Under the pieces are notes generated by a model. It ran no database searches and was not told the origin of the DNA. It worked only from the letters and a program-made list of their open reading frames with translations. 64,000 nt of DNA from Tetragenococcus koreensis (lineage in GTDB: Bacteria > Bacillota > Bacilli > Lactobacillales > Enterococcaceae): positions 1,612,001 to 1,676,000 of the forward strand of contig NZ_CP027786.1 in NCBI RefSeq assembly GCF_003795145.1, read 5' to 3'. Below, piece by piece: positions 7,306-48,813 of this stretch. The position numbers and the translations under genes were made by a program. Positions within the stretch are counted from its first letter, which is position 1. Every line of letters starts with the position of its first letter.

Positions 7306-7334
7306 TTTTTCACCAACTTTCAAATCGAGTAGGA

Positions 7335-7401
7335 GATGAATGATTATTTCATTCATCGTCCTCTCACACCACCGTACGTACGGTTCCGTATACGGCGGTT
7401 C
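7335..7401 (-). ncRNA. Group II intron domains V and VI
   Basis: Catalytic domain V spans about 7368-7401. It contains the CGC-type triad context GAACCGCC and paired GTACGTACGG segments. Domain VI is the hairpin GATGAATGA / TCATTCATC (7335-7343 with 7349-7357, loop 7344-7348). The ribozyme core looks intact by eye, so splicing could persist if maturase is supplied in trans. Confidence 0.85.
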
Positions 7402-7413
7402 AATAATTTAAGC

Positions 7414-8684
7414 TTATTTCTCAAGGATTTCATTGAAATCCTTGAGTTTCCATTGTTTGAATTTTTCTTTCGTAAAGATTCGGTGGAGTAGTTTAGACTC
7501 GGAAATACGCCAATACGATTTTCGACTATTTGCATAAGTCATGGCTTCTCTGTGAGAAGCCCCTCTTGCTTTCAGTTGTCGATATTTTGTTGACACTTTC
7601 TTCCATCTTTTCCAAATAAGGGCGCGCAATCTTCTACGTAAGTGGGTCATTTGTTTCGCTAAGAAAGCCTTTAGTTCCCCTTTCTTATAATAGTTAATCC
7701 AACCTTGCGTATATTGATTGATCGATGAGATAATTTCGTCTAGGCTTCCCGATCTTTTCCGATTGGTCAGTTTCTTTAACTGTCTCTTGAACTTTTGTTT
7801 GGCCGACGCTGTGGGCCGGCTCTTTACTTTCCCTTATCTTTCCTCAGACGGAATCCGAGGTATTCCAATTGATGCGCCTTTACAATTTGGCTCTTCTCTT
7901 GGTTTACCGTGAGTCGTAACTTTCCTTCCAGGAACTGGGTGACACTTTCTTGAACCCTTTGGGCGGCTCGTTCACTTTGTACTAGCACGATAAAATCGTC
8001 GGCGTAGCGGATAAAACGATGCCCTCTCTTTTCGAGTTCCTTATCTAGTTGGTCAAGATAGACGTTGGCTAAAAGTGGAGATAAGGGGCTGCCCTGTTGG
8101 GCTCCTTGAGGTGTAGAACGGATAATTTCCCCGTCTAGTACGCCCGCATTGAGAAAATTCCAGATTAATTGAAGGATTTCTTTATCAGCGATATACCATT
8201 GCATACGATGCATTAGTTTCTGATGATTGATGGTGTCGAAATAACTTTTTAAGTCACAATCCACGACCACATTGTAGCCTTCTTCATAATATTTTCCTGC
8301 TTGATCGATTGCCTGTTGGCAATTCTTTCCAGGTCTAAATCCATAACTGTTTTTAGAAAAGGTCGGGTCGATCAAAGGGGTAATGACTTGTAAAATCATC
8401 TGTTGTACCACGCGGTCTCGTACGACAGGAATACTCAACTTTCGTTTCTTGCCGTCTTTCTTATCAATCTCTACCCGTTTGGTGGGCTGAGGACGATAAG
8501 TCCCTTCTTTCAGTTTTTGAACAAAAGGTTGTCGGTATTTGTTTAGATGTTCCTTGATTTCAAATACGGTCATCTCATCGATGCCTGGTGCTCCTTTGTT
8601 CTTCTTTACTTTCTCGATGGCTCGATCAATATTCATCGAACTTACGAGTTCGTCCATTAATGGATAGCCACTTTGGTTCTTCAT
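7414..8684 (-). pseudogene. ltrA: Group II intron reverse transcriptase/maturase, frameshifted
   Basis: Intron-encoded protein. The first 286 residues (from 8684) hold the RT fingers and palm: SYGFRPGKNC, GSPLSPLLANVYLDQLD and the catalytic YADD box. The frame then hits a stop at 7824. The thumb/maturase part (GWINYYKKGEL and the basic C-terminus) continues in another frame to 7414. Adding one G to the GGG at 7831-7833 (minus strand) restores a single frame of about 423 codons, the usual class C length without an endonuclease domain. It is probably inactive unless the base is a sequencing error. Confidence 0.88.
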
Positions 8685-9201
8685 TTGATTGTCGTGCTCC
8701 CTTACGCGCTCCTCATTTCCTCTTTTGCTTCCAGCTTATCCCTCCATGAGTGAGCTACCTCTCGGTCTTTACCACGGTATTGGCTGCGGTCCTGGTGAGC
8801 ACATCCACCTCCTTGTTTACTTCAAAGTTATTATTGTTCAGTCCTTCGTATCGTAAGATACTACTATGACCTCGGCTGACTTCTATCGATTCGTTGTTAC
8901 TACGATTGATTGCATTCGCTCGATAGACCTCCTCGGGTAAGGCGCGATCACCTTCCACTCATCTCACTGCTTCATTTACTGGATAGGATTCGGGCAGTAT
9001 CGGACTTTGCTTTGTTTTGCAAGCTCATCCGTCCCAATCCAGCCTTCTTATGAAGTTCCTGTTCGTCAGTGCGAGTGTTTGCCTCCAGCTTCCTTCAGAT
9101 TCCACCTCGCGATGGACACCCTTGCTTTTGGCTAACAGTTCCTACTGCCAAGCCTGTAGTGGACTTTCACCACCAAGTTATCGCCCATGCCGAGCGCACA
9201 A

Positions 9202-44566: not shown

Positions 44567-45386
44567 TTTCCGGTACCATCCTTTTTTCTGCTTGATTATA
44601 AGCACCATGCCAGATGTGCCCCACGTACGGATTGATTGACACGCCATTTTCGATACCCACAGCTACAAATGCTTTGGCTGTTTTACAAGCTTCAAGCACC
44701 GAATATCCTTTGGCAATCCCGGCGGCAATTGCTGCTGCAAATGTGCAACCAGCTCCGTGGTTAAAGTCAGTGGAAAATAGTTTTCCTTCAAGCGCTTGAT
44801 AATCTTTTCCATCATAAAAAAGATCTATCGCTTTATCACTAGCTAGACGATGCCCACCTTTAACAATGACGTTTTTAGCACCCATTTGATAAATAATCGC
44901 TGCGGCTTTTTTCATATCATCCAAATTTTCTAAATCACCTAAACCCGACAAAATACCCGCTTCTTCTAAATTAGGCGTTGTAATCAATGCTTGAGGAAGT
45001 AAATATTTTTTTATTCCTTCAACGCTTTTAGGCTGTAAAATTTGCGCAGTTCCTTTACAAGCAATCACCGGATCAATGACAACGTTTTTTATTTGATAAC
45101 GATCAATAAATTTACTTGCTACTGCTATATTTTTTTCATTGCCCATCATTCCCGTTTTTACCACGTCAACCGGACCACCGGCAAATACCGAAATTAATTG
45201 CTTTTCTAGTAATTCTTCAGAGATTGAAGTCACGTCATGACTCCAACCATTATCTGGATCCATAGTCACAATTGAAGTTAAACTTGAAAAGCCAAACACA
45301 CCATATTCCTCAAATGTTTTTAAATCTGCTTGGATCCCTGCACCACCTGTGGAATCCGATCCAGCAATCGTCAATACTTTTTCCAT
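44550..45386 (-). CDS. pdxK: Pyridoxal/hydroxymethylpyrimidine kinase of the ThiD/PdxK family
   Basis: 278 aa ribokinase-fold kinase. [20 protein letters not shown] at the N-terminus, [10 protein letters not shown] in the middle and the anion-hole motif [15 protein letters not shown] (usual GTGC reads GAGC here) near the end. ThiD and Firmicutes PdxK are hard to separate. The downstream ECF S component and the divergent MocR-type regulator favour a pyridoxine/pyridoxal kinase. The start follows GAGGAAGTGAAG. The promoter should lie in 45387-45480, next to the IS110 insertion. Confidence 0.85.
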
Positions 45387-45514
45387 ATCTTCACTTCCTC
45401 GTAAAATATATTTATAAGCATCTTTTCTGATGCAAATGTTCTGGTTCTTTGAAAATAAAATAAATAACGTTAAATAATAAAATCTTTAGGCAACACTACC
45501 TTTTCTCCCTTTGT

Positions 45515-45903
45515 CAAAGCGAGCTTTGCTCGCCGAGGCAAGGAGCGAAGCTCCGCGCAGCTCGTGATTCTTGAACGAGCGGAGGGCACTTTGGAACTTG
45601 TTTCGATATTGTGTGGTTCCTGAGATATAATTGTCAGTGGAAAGGATCCACATGGGATTGTGCTATCACCTCCTGTAGTTCGTCTACGCATTTAAGCATG
45701 CAACCCAGACCGTTGTTATCATTACCAACACACTATCTGTTTCGACATTCGGGCAGGCATACCTTGAGTAGAAGGTTTGAAAGCAGCTCCTGCCTCTTGT
45801 CACTATATTCTCATAAACGAGGTTGTGATTACACAACGTGTATCTTGGGAAGCCCACAGTATCGAAGCATTTTCCTAATTTTTTTGAAAGGAGGTCCTTC
45901 CCC
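45515..45903 (+). ncRNA. Candidate IS110 bridge RNA region
   Basis: Non-coding left end of the element with consecutive hairpins: GCGAGC/GCTCGC (45519-45533), GGAGC/GCTCC (45542-45554), GCTCGT/ACGAGC (45560-45580). Further structured sequence runs to the transposase RBS. In IS110-group elements such as IS621 the bridge RNA that specifies target and donor is encoded here. The exact 5' and 3' ends and guide loops are not assigned. Confidence 0.55.
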
Positions 45904-47154
45904 GTGAAATTATTTGTAGGTATAGACGTTAGCTCGGAAAAACTAGATACATGTTATCTAACCGACGAAATGGTGGTGCTGTTAAATCACACCTATGGCA
46001 ACGACACCCAAGGCGCCTGGGAACTAAAAGAACAGGTACTCGCCTTTTACGAAACGTATTCGTTTGACCAAATCGTCATTGGTATGGAATCTACCTCCAT
46101 GTATAGTTATCATCCAGCGGTAAATTTCCACCAGGATGAACAGCTTCAAGCGATTCATGCCATTACAACGATTGAAAATCCACATCGAATCAAACAATAT
46201 ATCAAAATGTTTGATGAGGATAAAACGGATCCGATCGACGCGTTCATGATTGCCGACTACTTACGGATTCAACGCTATACGAATTCACCTATCAAAGAAG
46301 AAAAATATATGGCGCTTCAACGATTGACTCGCACGCGTTATCAATTCGTACGGCAATTAGTTGAAGTCAAACAACATTTTATCGAAAACCTTTCGTATAA
46401 ATGCAATACCTTAAAAAAGGAATTGCGTGAAGCTGAAGGGTCTACGACCGTTTTTAGTGCCGCAATCATGGAACTTTTTACCCAAGATTTATCCTTAGAC
46501 GACTTAGCGAACCTGCCTTTGAAAGATTTTGCCGAATGGCTTCAAACGAAAGGGCGCGGTCGCTTTAAAGATCCCGAAGGGTTGGCAAAAACGATCCAAC
46601 GGGCCATCCGTAGTTCTTACCGGCTTGATCAAGTCGTGAGCGAATCGGTCGACATGATCTTAGGCATCCTTGTGCGTGAAATTCGTTCCTTGGAAAAAGC
46701 CATTAAAGACTGTGACCAAGGGATCGAAGATCTCGTTCAAACGGTGCCCGAATACCAATGTTTAACCAGTATTCCCGGTGTAGGTCCCGTTTATGCCGCT
46801 GGCTTATTAGCTGAAATCGGTCAAATCCAACGTTTTCCCGATCAAGCTAGTTTAGCCAAATATGCTGGTCTCACTTGGCCCAGACATCAGTCAGGCCGTC
46901 ATGAAGCCGAGGACACACCATTAACGAAAAAAGGCAATCGCTATTTCCGTTACTACTTAATTGAAGCTGCCAATTCTGTAAGACGACATTTGCCCGAATA
47001 CCAAGCCTTTTATCGTAAGAAATATCAAGAAACGCCGAAACATCAGCACAAAAGAGCCATCGTTTTAACTGCAAGAAAATTTGTGCGTTTGGTGGATACG
47101 CTACTACGTAACCACCAACTCTATACGCCACCTAGGAGCGTGATAGAAAAATAA
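45904..47154 (+). CDS. IS110-family transposase (DEDD recombinase)
   Basis: 416 aa from the GTG at 45904, 9 nt after GGAGG; the frame continues upstream without support. The N-terminal RuvC-like DEDD domain shows FVGIDVSSEKLDTCY (first Asp), IGMESTSMY (Glu) and DPIDAFMIADYL (Asp pair). A coiled-coil-like middle follows. The C-terminal Transposase_20 domain has TSIPGVGPVYAAGLLAEIG and KYAGLTWPRHQSGRH with the serine region proposed to cut DNA in IS110 recombinases. It appears intact. The usual ISKRGN motif reads LTKKGN here. Confidence 0.92.
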   Translation: MKLFVGIDVSSEKLDTCYLTDEMVVLLNHTYGNDTQGAWELKEQVLAFYETYSFDQIVIGMESTSMYSYHPAVNFHQDEQLQAIHAITTIENPHRIKQYIKMFDEDKTDPIDAFMIADYLRIQRYTNSPIKEEKYMALQRLTRTRYQFVRQLVEVKQHFIENLSYKCNTLKKELREAEGSTTVFSAAIMELFTQDLSLDDLANLPLKDFAEWLQTKGRGRFKDPEGLAKTIQRAIRSSYRLDQVVSESVDMILGILVREIRSLEKAIKDCDQGIEDLVQTVPEYQCLTSIPGVGPVYAAGLLAEIGQIQRFPDQASLAKYAGLTWPRHQSGRHEAEDTPLTKKGNRYFRYYLIEAANSVRRHLPEYQAFYRKKYQETPKHQHKRAIVLTARKFVRLVDTLLRNHQLYTPPRSVIEK

Positions 47155-47351
47155 CATTATTGTTATTTTGCGCATTTCTTAGGAAACGACCTGTGAAAAC
47201 GCTTGATTTGCGCAGGCCTAGTTCAGCGAGCCCATTTTCAAGTTTAAAAACAGAAATGATTTCAATTTTTATCTTGACTCTTTACCACTATGCTTACATT
47301 AATTTCGTTTAATCTTGAGTATACGCATCTTCTCACTTGACGAAAACAGCC

Positions 47352-47379
47352 AATTGGACTATTTTTAACTCATCCAATT
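47352..47379. promoter_or_regulatory. Inverted repeat upstream of the MocR-type regulator gene
   Basis: AATTGGA and TCCAATT (47352-47358, 47373-47379) flank 14 bp, just before the regulator start. A MocR autoregulatory operator is plausible but unproven. A TTGACT -35-like box lies about 80 bp upstream. Confidence 0.45.
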
Positions 47380-47385
47380 AAGAAG

Positions 47386-48813
47386 GTGATTGTTATCTGG
47401 ACTATTGATAAAACAAAAAAAGAACCGCTCTATCAGCAATTGCTACACCAAATCATTGCCAGTATCCAACAAGGCGAGTTAGCTCCGGGCGAACGCTTAC
47501 CCGCTGAACGAAAACTTGCGGAAATTCTGCAAGTCAATCGTTCAACAGTGGTGCATACTTTCGAAGAATTGACCAGTCTGGGCTGGGTTGAACGCCGACA
47601 AGGCAGTGGCACTCTTGTGGCACAAGGACAATGGGGCAATCGACAACCAGCCATTTATCAATGGCGTTCATTATTTTCTAGCCCTTTATTAAAAGAAGAT
47701 CCCTACCTTACCCAGTTAAAAAATCAAAAAGTGGCTAAAGACGGGCTGGATCTTTACACCGGAGATTTAAGCAGCGACTTGATTCCTGATTTTAAATTTC
47801 CCACTATGACTTGGGACCAAATCATGCACGAAGAAAAACAAATAACTCCGACAGGTTATAAGCCATTAAAAGAACTGATTTTTCAACATTTTTTTCAAGG
47901 TATCCCACAAAAAGAACAGGATATTTTAATTACGGCGGGGTCAACCCAAGGAATTTTTTGGCTTATTCAGGTTTTATTAAACCCAGGAGACACCATCGCT
48001 ACAGAAGATCCTTCTTTTTTATTTTCGTTGCCTTTATTTGCTGCAAGAGGAATTCACTTAAAAGGAATCAAACAAGATCAAGCAGGAATTGATTGCCAAG
48101 CTTTGGAAGAGTCAATCCAAAAAAAGAAAATAAAATTATTATATCTTAATCCAAATTATCAAAACCCAACTGGACGTACAATGACACTGCAACGCCGCAA
48201 AGAGATCATTCATATTTGTCAAAAACACCATTTGCCTATTATTGAAGATGACGTTTTTAGTGAATTAGGTTTTGGTCAATCTATCGCATCTTTAAAGTCT
48301 CTTGCACCCGATCAAGTGATTTATTTAGGTTCACTATCCAAAATTTTTAGTTCTTCTATAAAAGTGGGTTGGCTTGTTGCACCAAAACCGTTAATTAAAA
48401 GCTTGGTCAACGCCAAAAAAATTATGGAAAATGAGACGGATTTACTACCGCAACTTTTAGCTACTGCAGCTTTATCGCAACAAACTTATAAAAAACAACA
48501 GCAGCAATTAACTGAAAAACTACAAGATAGAAGTCAGGCTTTTTCTGATACTTTACAGCCTTTTAAAAAAGATTGGCAGTTTTCTCCAGTTGATGGTGGA
48601 CTTTACTACTGGTTGACTTGGCAACAACGAAAACTAACTCGCAATGACTGGCAAGCTTTCTTACAAGAAGGATTGTTAGTTGCCCCCTCCTTTTTATTTA
48701 GTAATGACACCTCATCTATGAGGGTAAACTACACCCGCTTAGATAAAGAGAATCGAATGATTTTTAGTCAAAAACTGGCGTTGATTACAAAGAAGCTGAA
48801 AAAAAATAGTTAA
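47386..48813 (+). CDS. pdxR: MocR-family transcriptional regulator (GntR HTH + aminotransferase fold), PdxR-like
   Basis: 475 aa. Residues ~10-75 form a GntR winged helix (EPLYQQLLHQIIASIQQGEL, LQVNRSTVVHTFEELTSLGW). The rest is a fold-type I aminotransferase domain with NPNYQNPTGRT and the PLP-lysine motif GSLSKIFSSSIKVGW. MocR proteins sense PLP or related ligands; PdxR members control vitamin B6 genes. It lies divergent from pdxK-pdxU, with IS110 in between, which supports a PdxR role. The start is uncertain: GTG at 47386 abuts AGAAG, and the good site AGAAGGTGA overlaps it. Confidence 0.8.
   Translation: MIVIWTIDKTKKEPLYQQLLHQIIASIQQGELAPGERLPAERKLAEILQVNRSTVVHTFEELTSLGWVERRQGSGTLVAQGQWGNRQPAIYQWRSLFSSPLLKEDPYLTQLKNQKVAKDGLDLYTGDLSSDLIPDFKFPTMTWDQIMHEEKQITPTGYKPLKELIFQHFFQGIPQKEQDILITAGSTQGIFWLIQVLLNPGDTIATEDPSFLFSLPLFAARGIHLKGIKQDQAGIDCQALEESIQKKKIKLLYLNPNYQNPTGRTMTLQRRKEIIHICQKHHLPIIEDDVFSELGFGQSIASLKSLAPDQVIYLGSLSKIFSSSIKVGWLVAPKPLIKSLVNAKKIMENETDLLPQLLATAALSQQTYKKQQQQLTEKLQDRSQAFSDTLQPFKKDWQFSPVDGGLYYWLTWQQRKLTRNDWQAFLQEGLLVAPSFLFSNDTSSMRVNYTRLDKENRMIFSQKLALITKKLKKNS

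What the first reader, a model, noticed from the sequence alone, without database searches (positions are those of the whole stretch)
45490..47230. IS110 element with a long structured 5' region: candidate bridge-RNA recombinase
The transposase is an apparently intact DEDD/Transposase_20 protein. Upstream lie about 390 nt of non-coding, GC-richer DNA with three consecutive perfect hairpins (45519-45580), while the downstream non-coding tail is short. In the IS110 group the upstream end encodes a bridge RNA with target and donor loops. This would be an enterococcal-type example whose target specificity could be read from the guide loops.
Basis: partly seen in the sequence, partly recalled or inferred. 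Interest (0 to 1): 0.62.

Follow-up and report, generated by a model that had tools for sequence, protein, structure and literature searches.

The report
Bridge-RNA transposon targeting ribosome-binding sites
This is a jumping gene whose own predicted guide RNA carries the same short sequence that ribosomes use to find gene starts, so it inserts at the ribosome-binding sites of many different genes.

Summary
The element is an IS110-group insertion sequence at 45398-47294 (not 45490-47230) in a Tetragenococcus genome. A second copy, relatives and empty sites fix its ends and CT core. The three hairpins are real but lie in a lineage-specific leader outside the guide RNA. The predicted bridge RNA is 45599-45869: a 24-pair closing stem around a target loop and a donor loop (fold z -6; strong compensatory change over 18 relatives).

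The guides can be read. Left-target guides track insertion sites over 46 sites and 17 guide types (0 of 20,000 permutations as good). The left-donor guide matches the donor end 6 of 6 in 17 of 17 elements. The target guide plus core here, AUCACCUCCU, equals the anti-Shine-Dalgarno tail of this genome's 16S rRNA. Insertions sit on Shine-Dalgarno sequences: 42 of 45 sites have an opposite-strand start codon with an open frame 6-20 nt away, mostly 11-12. The ribosome-binding site stays with the gene.

IS900 was known to target translation starts; an IS110 guide RNA built on the anti-Shine-Dalgarno sequence I did not find in print. Nothing here shows RNA expression or transposition.

The parts
45398..47294 (+). 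whole IS110-group element, CT core at both ends (45398-45399 and 47293-47294)
   Evidence: second copy and genus copies diverge outside these borders; empty sites
45402..45407 (+). -10 box (TAAAAT) of the promoter formed at the circle junction
   Evidence: 17 nt from the right-end -35 across the core; same spacing in 34 of 34 copies read
45599..45869 (+). predicted bridge RNA, bounded by its closing stem (45599-45625 with 45843-45869)
45653..45707 (+). target-binding loop
   Evidence: consensus helices 2-4
45665..45674 (+). left target guide plus core, ATCACCTC-CT, identical to the 16S 3' tail
45688..45696 (+). right target guide GCATTTAAG, specifying CT-TAAATGC
45711..45838 (+). donor-binding loop
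   Evidence: helices 5-7
45731..45736 (+). left donor guide CACTAT
   Evidence: equals the donor hexamer in 17 of 17 elements read
45818..45821 (+). right donor guide CGAG, complementary to CTCG at the left end
   Evidence: invariant in alignment A1, so untestable by covariation
45904..47154 (+). IS110 recombinase, D8/E62/D109/D112 and S330
47274..47279 (+). -35 box TTGACT of the junction promoter
47284..47294 (+). left donor ACCACTATG plus core CT at the right end
45386..45397 (-). target: start codon region and Shine-Dalgarno half of the pdxK-like gene

Best explanation
The element is an RNA-guided recombinase of the IS110 group. It excises as a circle. Joining right end to left end across the CT core builds a promoter (TTGACT-N17-TAAAAT) that transcribes the left end. 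The left-end RNA folds into a bridge RNA of about 270 nt. Its donor loop pairs with the circle junction (left donor CACTAT, right donor CTCG). Its target loop carries the anti-Shine-Dalgarno sequence AUCACCUC-CU, with a right guide for TAAATGC, so the recombinase inserts the circle at a CT inside Shine-Dalgarno sequences, antisense to the gene. The joint puts element-borne CGAG against the rest of the Shine-Dalgarno, so the gene keeps a ribosome-binding site but is cut off from its upstream promoter.

Shown here by sequence: ends, core, empty site, conserved RNA structure, guide-target and left-donor covariation, Shine-Dalgarno placement, junction promoter geometry, conserved catalytic residues.

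Inferred from IS621: excision as a circle, RNA expression, RNA-protein binding and the serine-plus-RuvC chemistry.
For: Ends and empty site.

RNA structure: 95.4% of cells paired against 39.5-43.9% when slid; 71 both-side-changed cells against 21.3 shuffled, 0 of 500.

Target guide: group mean own-guide match 4.70 of 8 against 3.51 (sd 0.22) for permuted guides, 0 of 20,000; right guide, first 4 bases, 2.41 against 1.86, 46 of 20,000.

Position 4 of the left target: guide T gives T in 17 of 22 sites, guide A gives T in 0 of 13; Fisher p 7e-6.

Donor guide: 6 of 6 in 17 of 17, 0 of 20,000. Scans over all alignment columns put the left target, right target and left donor guides at one best place each, inside the predicted loops.

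Shine-Dalgarno: 42 of 45 sites have a start codon with at least 40 open codons 6-20 nt away, 36 of the 42 at 11-12 nt, against 2,597 of 20,000 random positions.

Anti-SD: GGATCACCTCCTTTCT occurs five times in the genome; the one tested is the 3' end of a 16S gene.

Recombinase.
Against: Only sequence evidence: no RNA, circle or transposition was seen, and no circle junction was found in 105 genomes. The two sites in the window's own genome match the left guide at only 6 of 8 positions each and the right guide at 4 and 3 of 7; for G000b two other guide types score better (rank 3 of 17). Six sites are one base out of register and score low (G001a, G002a, G005f, G004p7, G009a, G011b7), and G026a and G046a fit poorly outright (2 and 4 of 8, ranks 17 and 11 of 17). 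Two plasmid copies fit poorly in register (L132 3 of 8, L127 5 of 8, counted by eye). The right-guide signal is weaker than the left and fades with length. The right donor guide cannot be tested because it is invariant. The RNA ends are inferred from the closing stem only.
Confidence: 0.92

Rival explanations
1. The recombinase protein itself recognises Shine-Dalgarno-like DNA, and the likeness of the upstream loop to the target is a by-product or regulatory.
For: Most guides and most sites share CCTC, so part of the match is common to all (others' guides still match 3.5 of 8).
Against: Sites follow the element's own guide beyond the common part (0 of 20,000; position-4 test). G055a, whose guide is AATCAGTC, sits at CATCAGTC. 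The guide strands form the two sides of a conserved internal loop.
Confidence: 0.03
2. A bridge RNA guides insertion, but to CT-containing pyrimidine-rich sites in general; Shine-Dalgarno sites are over-represented because they are tolerated, not because the guide is tuned to them.
For: Observed sites are survivors, and intergenic insertions are less harmful. Some guides (AAGTTCTC, GTATTCTC, AATCAGTC) have drifted from the anti-Shine-Dalgarno sequence.
Against: Guides match the anti-Shine-Dalgarno octamer at 5.5 of 8 on average against 2.7 at random, and spacing to the start codon is 11-12 nt in 36 of 42.
Confidence: 0.04
3. The copy is a dead relic: structure and guide remain, but neither RNA nor protein works now.
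For: Only two copies in this genome; no circle junction seen; site-guide match is imperfect.
Against: Open frame, five conserved catalytic residues, both junction-promoter halves, and a near-identical second copy at a different place.
Confidence: 0.1

Closest known systems
IS621 (E. coli, IS110 group) and its bridge RNA
   Same: Left-end bridge RNA, CT core, junction promoter, target and donor internal loops split into left and right guides, DEDD plus catalytic serine recombinase (PMC11208160 and PMC11208158, passages seen; phmmer E 1.2e-11).
   Different: The IS621 RNA is 177 nt with a 5' stem-loop, as described in the passages seen; this one is about 270 nt and enclosed by a 24-pair stem between its two ends. 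Protein 416 aa against 326. IS621 targets REP sequences (title of a reference seen); this targets Shine-Dalgarno sequences.
IS900 (Mycobacterium avium paratuberculosis, IS110 family)
   Same: Inserts at translation initiation signals: site motif CATGNNNNNNTCTCCTT, which I read as start codon then reversed Shine-Dalgarno (PMC8141618, passages seen). Of Doran 1997 only the title was seen, in its reference list.
   Different: No guide RNA appears in the passages seen. It carries an opposite-strand 'hed' frame. Its sequence was not compared here.
seekRNA of IS1111/IS110 elements
   Same: RNA from the non-coding region guides target choice, upstream in IS110 type (PMC11187229, abstract and passages seen).
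   Different: The paper's main text holds no 'Shine', 'IS900' or 'Enterococc', and its single hits for 'ribosom' and 'start codon' are not about targets.

Membership tests
IS110 family, IS110 group | DEDD_Tnp_IS110 (RuvC-like) and Transposase_20 domains | tested here: met
   NCBIfam IS110 equivalog, 252 bits against cut-off 140
IS110 family, IS110 group | D-E-D-D plus catalytic serine | tested here: met
   D8, E62, D109, D112, S330 invariant in 16 of 16, aligned to IS621 (IS621 residues)
IS110 family, IS110 group | clean insertion with a dinucleotide core, no longer target duplication | tested here: met
   CT at the empty sites
IS110 family, IS110 group | left non-coding end longer than right end | tested here: met
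   about 505 against 140 nt
IS110 family, IS110 group | promoter formed at the circle junction | tested here: met
   17-nt spacing in 34 of 34 copies whose right end was read; activity not tested
IS110 family, IS110 group | circular intermediate | tested here: inconclusive
   junction pattern in 0 of 105 assemblies; circles would be transient
Bridge RNA (IS110 group) | conserved structured RNA in the left end | tested here: met
Bridge RNA (IS110 group) | target loop guides match and covary with insertion sites | tested here: met
Bridge RNA (IS110 group) | donor loop guides match and covary with element ends | tested here: met
   left donor guide 17 of 17; right donor guide invariant, not testable
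Bridge RNA (IS110 group) | RNA expressed and bound by the recombinase; recombination in vitro | not testable with these tools
   needs small-RNA sequencing and assays
Bridge RNA (IS110 group) | match to a covariance model of IS621-type bridge RNA | not tested
   no such model or IS621 RNA sequence was at hand; Rfam has no match in the element except mir-60 at 47124-47190, E 0.13, below its gathering score
IS900-like translation-start targeting | insertion at a Shine-Dalgarno just upstream of a start codon, in fixed orientation | tested here: met
   a likeness of target only, kinship to IS900 not tested

The most novel reading that the evidence does not exclude
A clade of bridge-RNA transposons has fixed on the ribosome's own anti-Shine-Dalgarno sequence as its guide. 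It can therefore read any bacterial genome's ribosome-binding sites and land in front of almost any gene, in one orientation, while leaving the ribosome-binding site in place. The guide-bearing RNA may in addition mimic the 16S rRNA tail and act on mRNAs, including its own transposase message. The targeting half is well supported. The mRNA-acting half is not excluded but has no positive evidence, and the probability given is for both halves together.
Probability: 0.12. Interest if true: 0.82.

Novelty: new variant of a known kind. Interest (0 to 1): 0.62.

Why it matters
It gives a mechanism, readable in the sequence, for a kind of target preference reported in the 1990s for IS900: an RNA guide that copies the anti-Shine-Dalgarno tail of 16S rRNA. 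That makes the preference directly testable by guide swaps. It supplies a naturally multi-target bridge-RNA system with 46 scored insertion sites and 17 natural guide variants, and a second RNA architecture to compare with IS621. Relatives of the protein occur in 423 of 72,556 plasmid records, 393 of them enterococcal, so the same logic may shape gene expression on these plasmids.

Tried and rejected
Hairpins as the bridge RNA: rejected. They lie outside the closing stem, are missing in relatives with short left ends, and the stretch as a whole folds no better than shuffles.

Hairpins as a genome-wide repeat: in this genome only the two element copies carry them.

Guide pairing with the transposase's Shine-Dalgarno in cis: predicted 0.00 in all 16 elements folded.

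Guides avoiding 16S rRNA genes: not supported. The G011b guide is itself close to the 16S tail, 7 of 8 on the left and TTCT on the right (read by eye).

Outward promoter for the displaced gene: promoter-like hits on 45300-47500 are 8 against 4.8 (sd 2.4) in shuffles, two of them on the minus strand of the left end; not convincing.

Circle junction in assemblies: 0 of 105 genomes.

Rows dropped or handled specially: G096a (left end missing) and L012 (no guide) were not scored; two duplicate sites (G011c, G004p1) were dropped, leaving 46; G021a has a 5-nt flank that matches 5 of 5 by eye but was scored 0, and it was left out of the start-codon test, leaving 45. G001a and G002a are probably one old insertion with different guides; both were kept. 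My guide pattern failed on 9 of 14 plasmid loci (L123-L126, L128-L131, L133); some were read by eye, and no plasmid locus is in the statistics. I recognised no target loop in the two Priestia copies and the Anoxybacillus copy.

No structure prediction and no RNA covariance model were run.

Full report
WHAT IS THERE. The window lies in a 2.73-Mb genome of the genus Tetragenococcus. The genus is inferred: T. halophilus contigs named have the same lengths and matches as contigs of G001 and G003, which marks as same genus. Between a pdxK-like kinase gene on the minus strand and a PdxR-like regulator gene on the plus strand sits one IS110-group element. A second copy elsewhere in the genome is 98.7% identical over 1,924 columns. 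Flanks of genus copies diverge immediately outside CTCGTAAAA on the left (26 left ends) and ACTATGCT on the right (11 right ends), giving 45398-47294 with a CT at each end. Uninterrupted orthologous sites in sister genomes read, for example, CACATC-CT-TACATT (L101) where the window reads CACTTC-CT [element] CT-TACATT. The insertion is therefore exact, with only the CT repeated.

THE PROTEIN. The frame at 45904-47154 encodes 416 residues with both IS110 domains, and it scores far above the NCBIfam IS110 cut-off (252 against 140 bits). Its best solved relatives are IS621 and ISCro4 (E 1.2e-11 and 2.7e-10). D8, E62, D109, D112 and S330 align with the IS621 catalytic D11, E60, D102, D105 and S241 (IS621 residues from PMC11208158, passages) and are invariant in 16 of 16 sequences aligned.

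THE RNA. Relatives were found in 17 of 105 genomes of the family at E 1e-60 or better, in 9 of 17 genera. Aligning their upstream ends shows a conserved block from about 45595 to 45870 and a variable stretch before it. Eighteen distinct sequences give a consensus of 53 pairs: a 24-pair stem joining the two ends of the block, a target loop whose two strands are the columns later found to be guides, and a donor loop (window positions). The structure is kept in 95.4% of cells against 39.5-43.9% when partners are slid, and 71 cells change on both sides against 21.3 in shuffles, 0 of 500. The shuffles do not correct for relatedness, as the tool warns. The window sequence alone folds at z -6.05. They exist, but their stretch has z -0.92, and relatives with 376-396-nt left ends lack it. 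No Rfam family fits the RNA.

READING THE GUIDES. The left strand of the target loop reads ATCACCTC-CT in both copies of the window's genome, and the right strand gives CT-TAAATGC. I scored 46 insertion sites with 17 distinct left guides, after dropping two duplicates. Sites match their own guide better than other elements' guides: group mean 4.70 of 8 against 3.51 (sd 0.22), 0 of 20,000 permutations of guides among groups. The right guide, over 31 sites and 13 guides, gives 2.41 of 4 against 1.86, 46 of 20,000; longer right stretches are weaker, 112 of 20,000 for five bases and 544 of 20,000 for six. At position 4, guides with T have T in 17 of 22 sites and guides with A have T in none of 13 (p 7e-6). 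Sliding windows over the whole alignment, with no place assumed, find the left target guide at column 89 (5.12 of 8, next 3.62; 16 sequences), the right target guide at 116 (4.67 of 6 including the CT, next 3.33; 15 sequences) and the left donor guide at 159 (6.0 of 6, next 4.18; 17 sequences). The left donor guide equals the donor hexamer in 17 of 17 elements over four donor types. The right donor guide CGAG and its partner CTCG do not vary in the aligned set, so covariation cannot test them.

POOR FITS. The two sites in the window's genome match their guide at 6 of 8 each. Six sites are one base out of register, and G026a and G046a fit poorly (2 and 4 of 8). Among the plasmid copies read, L122 fits 8 of 8, L121 7 of 8, L120 6 of 8, L127 5 of 8 and L132 3 of 8 in register (counted by eye).

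WHERE IT LANDS. In 42 of 45 sites an opposite-strand start codon with at least 40 open codons lies 6-20 nt from the core, 36 of the 42 at 11 or 12 nt; 2,597 of 20,000 random positions do so. Of the three failures, two have flanks of only 129 and 46 nt (G072a, G055a); the third is G011a2. The sequence next to the core is usually a Shine-Dalgarno sequence (GAGG, GGAGG, AAGGTG), with exceptions such as G055a, G020a and G026a. After insertion the gene strand of the window copy reads ACGAGGAAGTGAAGATATG where it read GTAAGGAAGTGAAGATATG. The ribosome-binding site is kept, while everything upstream is pushed about 1.9 kb away. The guide plus core is identical over ten bases to the 16S 3' tail: the pattern occurs five times in this genome, and the one place tested is the 3' end of a 16S gene. 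The 17 guides match that anti-Shine-Dalgarno octamer at 5.5 of 8 positions on average against 2.7 for random octamers of the same composition. One guide has left it (AATCAGTC, G055a), and its site is CATCAGTC. Fourteen plasmid copies were inspected out of 423 matching records. In 13 of 13 annotated ones the nearest left gene is on the opposite strand, beginning 10-13 nt from the left end in 11 of 13 and 31 and 75 nt away in the other two (positions). Four of the 13 share one site, so this is 8 of 10 distinct sites.

HOW IT MOST LIKELY WORKS. The right end carries TTGACT and the left end a -10 box, set 17 nt apart across the core in 34 of 34 copies whose right end could be read (one copy, G046a, has TTTACT). 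As in IS621 (PMC11208160, passages) the circle would thus switch on transcription of the left end and give the bridge RNA. That RNA would pair with the circle junction through the donor loop and with a Shine-Dalgarno through the target loop. The steps of excision, expression, binding and strand exchange are inferred from IS621, not shown here.

WHAT IS KNOWN. IS110 bridge RNAs and seekRNAs were published in 2024 (PMC11208160, PMC11208158, PMC11187229; passages read). IS900 targets translation starts with motif CATGNNNNNNTCTCCTT (PMC8141618, passages). In the held library I found no paper joining the two: searches 'IS110 + Shine-Dalgarno', 'bridge RNA + ribosome binding site + IS110', 'IS110 family + Shine-Dalgarno + target site', 'bridge RNA + Shine-Dalgarno', 'IS110 + Enterococcus + bridge RNA' and 'seekRNA'. 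Of the papers listed I looked into passages of PMC7823733, PMC3196728 and PMC12500396, which do not describe it; the others I saw as listings only. Subscription papers and supplements were not searchable, and Durrant et al. surveyed many IS110 guides in supplements I did not see, so prior description is possible. I therefore call it a new variant of a known kind.

LIMITS. All evidence is comparative. Whether the displaced gene is still transcribed, and from where, is unexplained; I found no convincing outward promoter.

Noticed in passing
window 7324-9116 (minus strand): Group II intron, three Rfam matches at or above gathering score, with an internal frame of only 286 aa at 7824-8684, which looks short for an intron reverse transcriptase.
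   Followed up: no
G000:C1:2573594-2574199 (L003, L004): A 66-69% identical relic of a related IS110 element elsewhere in the same genome.
   Followed up: no
L087 1488-4157: One copy in genome G005 carries an internal partial duplication that breaks its transposase.
   Followed up: partly
sites G001a (L068), G002a (L011), G005f (L063), G004p7 (L032), G009a (L093), G011b7 (L080): Six sites carry one extra base between the guide match and the CT core, suggesting a tolerated one-base bulge or slip in target pairing.
   Followed up: partly
window 45518-45580: The leader hairpins appear to keep their pairing through changed bases in G074a (read by eye), so they may have a function of their own, outside the guide RNA.
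   Followed up: no
L127, L097 (G025b), L048 (G026a): Three relatives have TT instead of CT at the core position of the target guide although their element ends keep CT; their sites fit the guide less well in register.
   Followed up: no
window 45886-45893: The transposase's own Shine-Dalgarno AAAGGAGG, read on the other strand, resembles the element's target, so self-targeting is conceivable; I did not search for it systematically.
   Followed up: no
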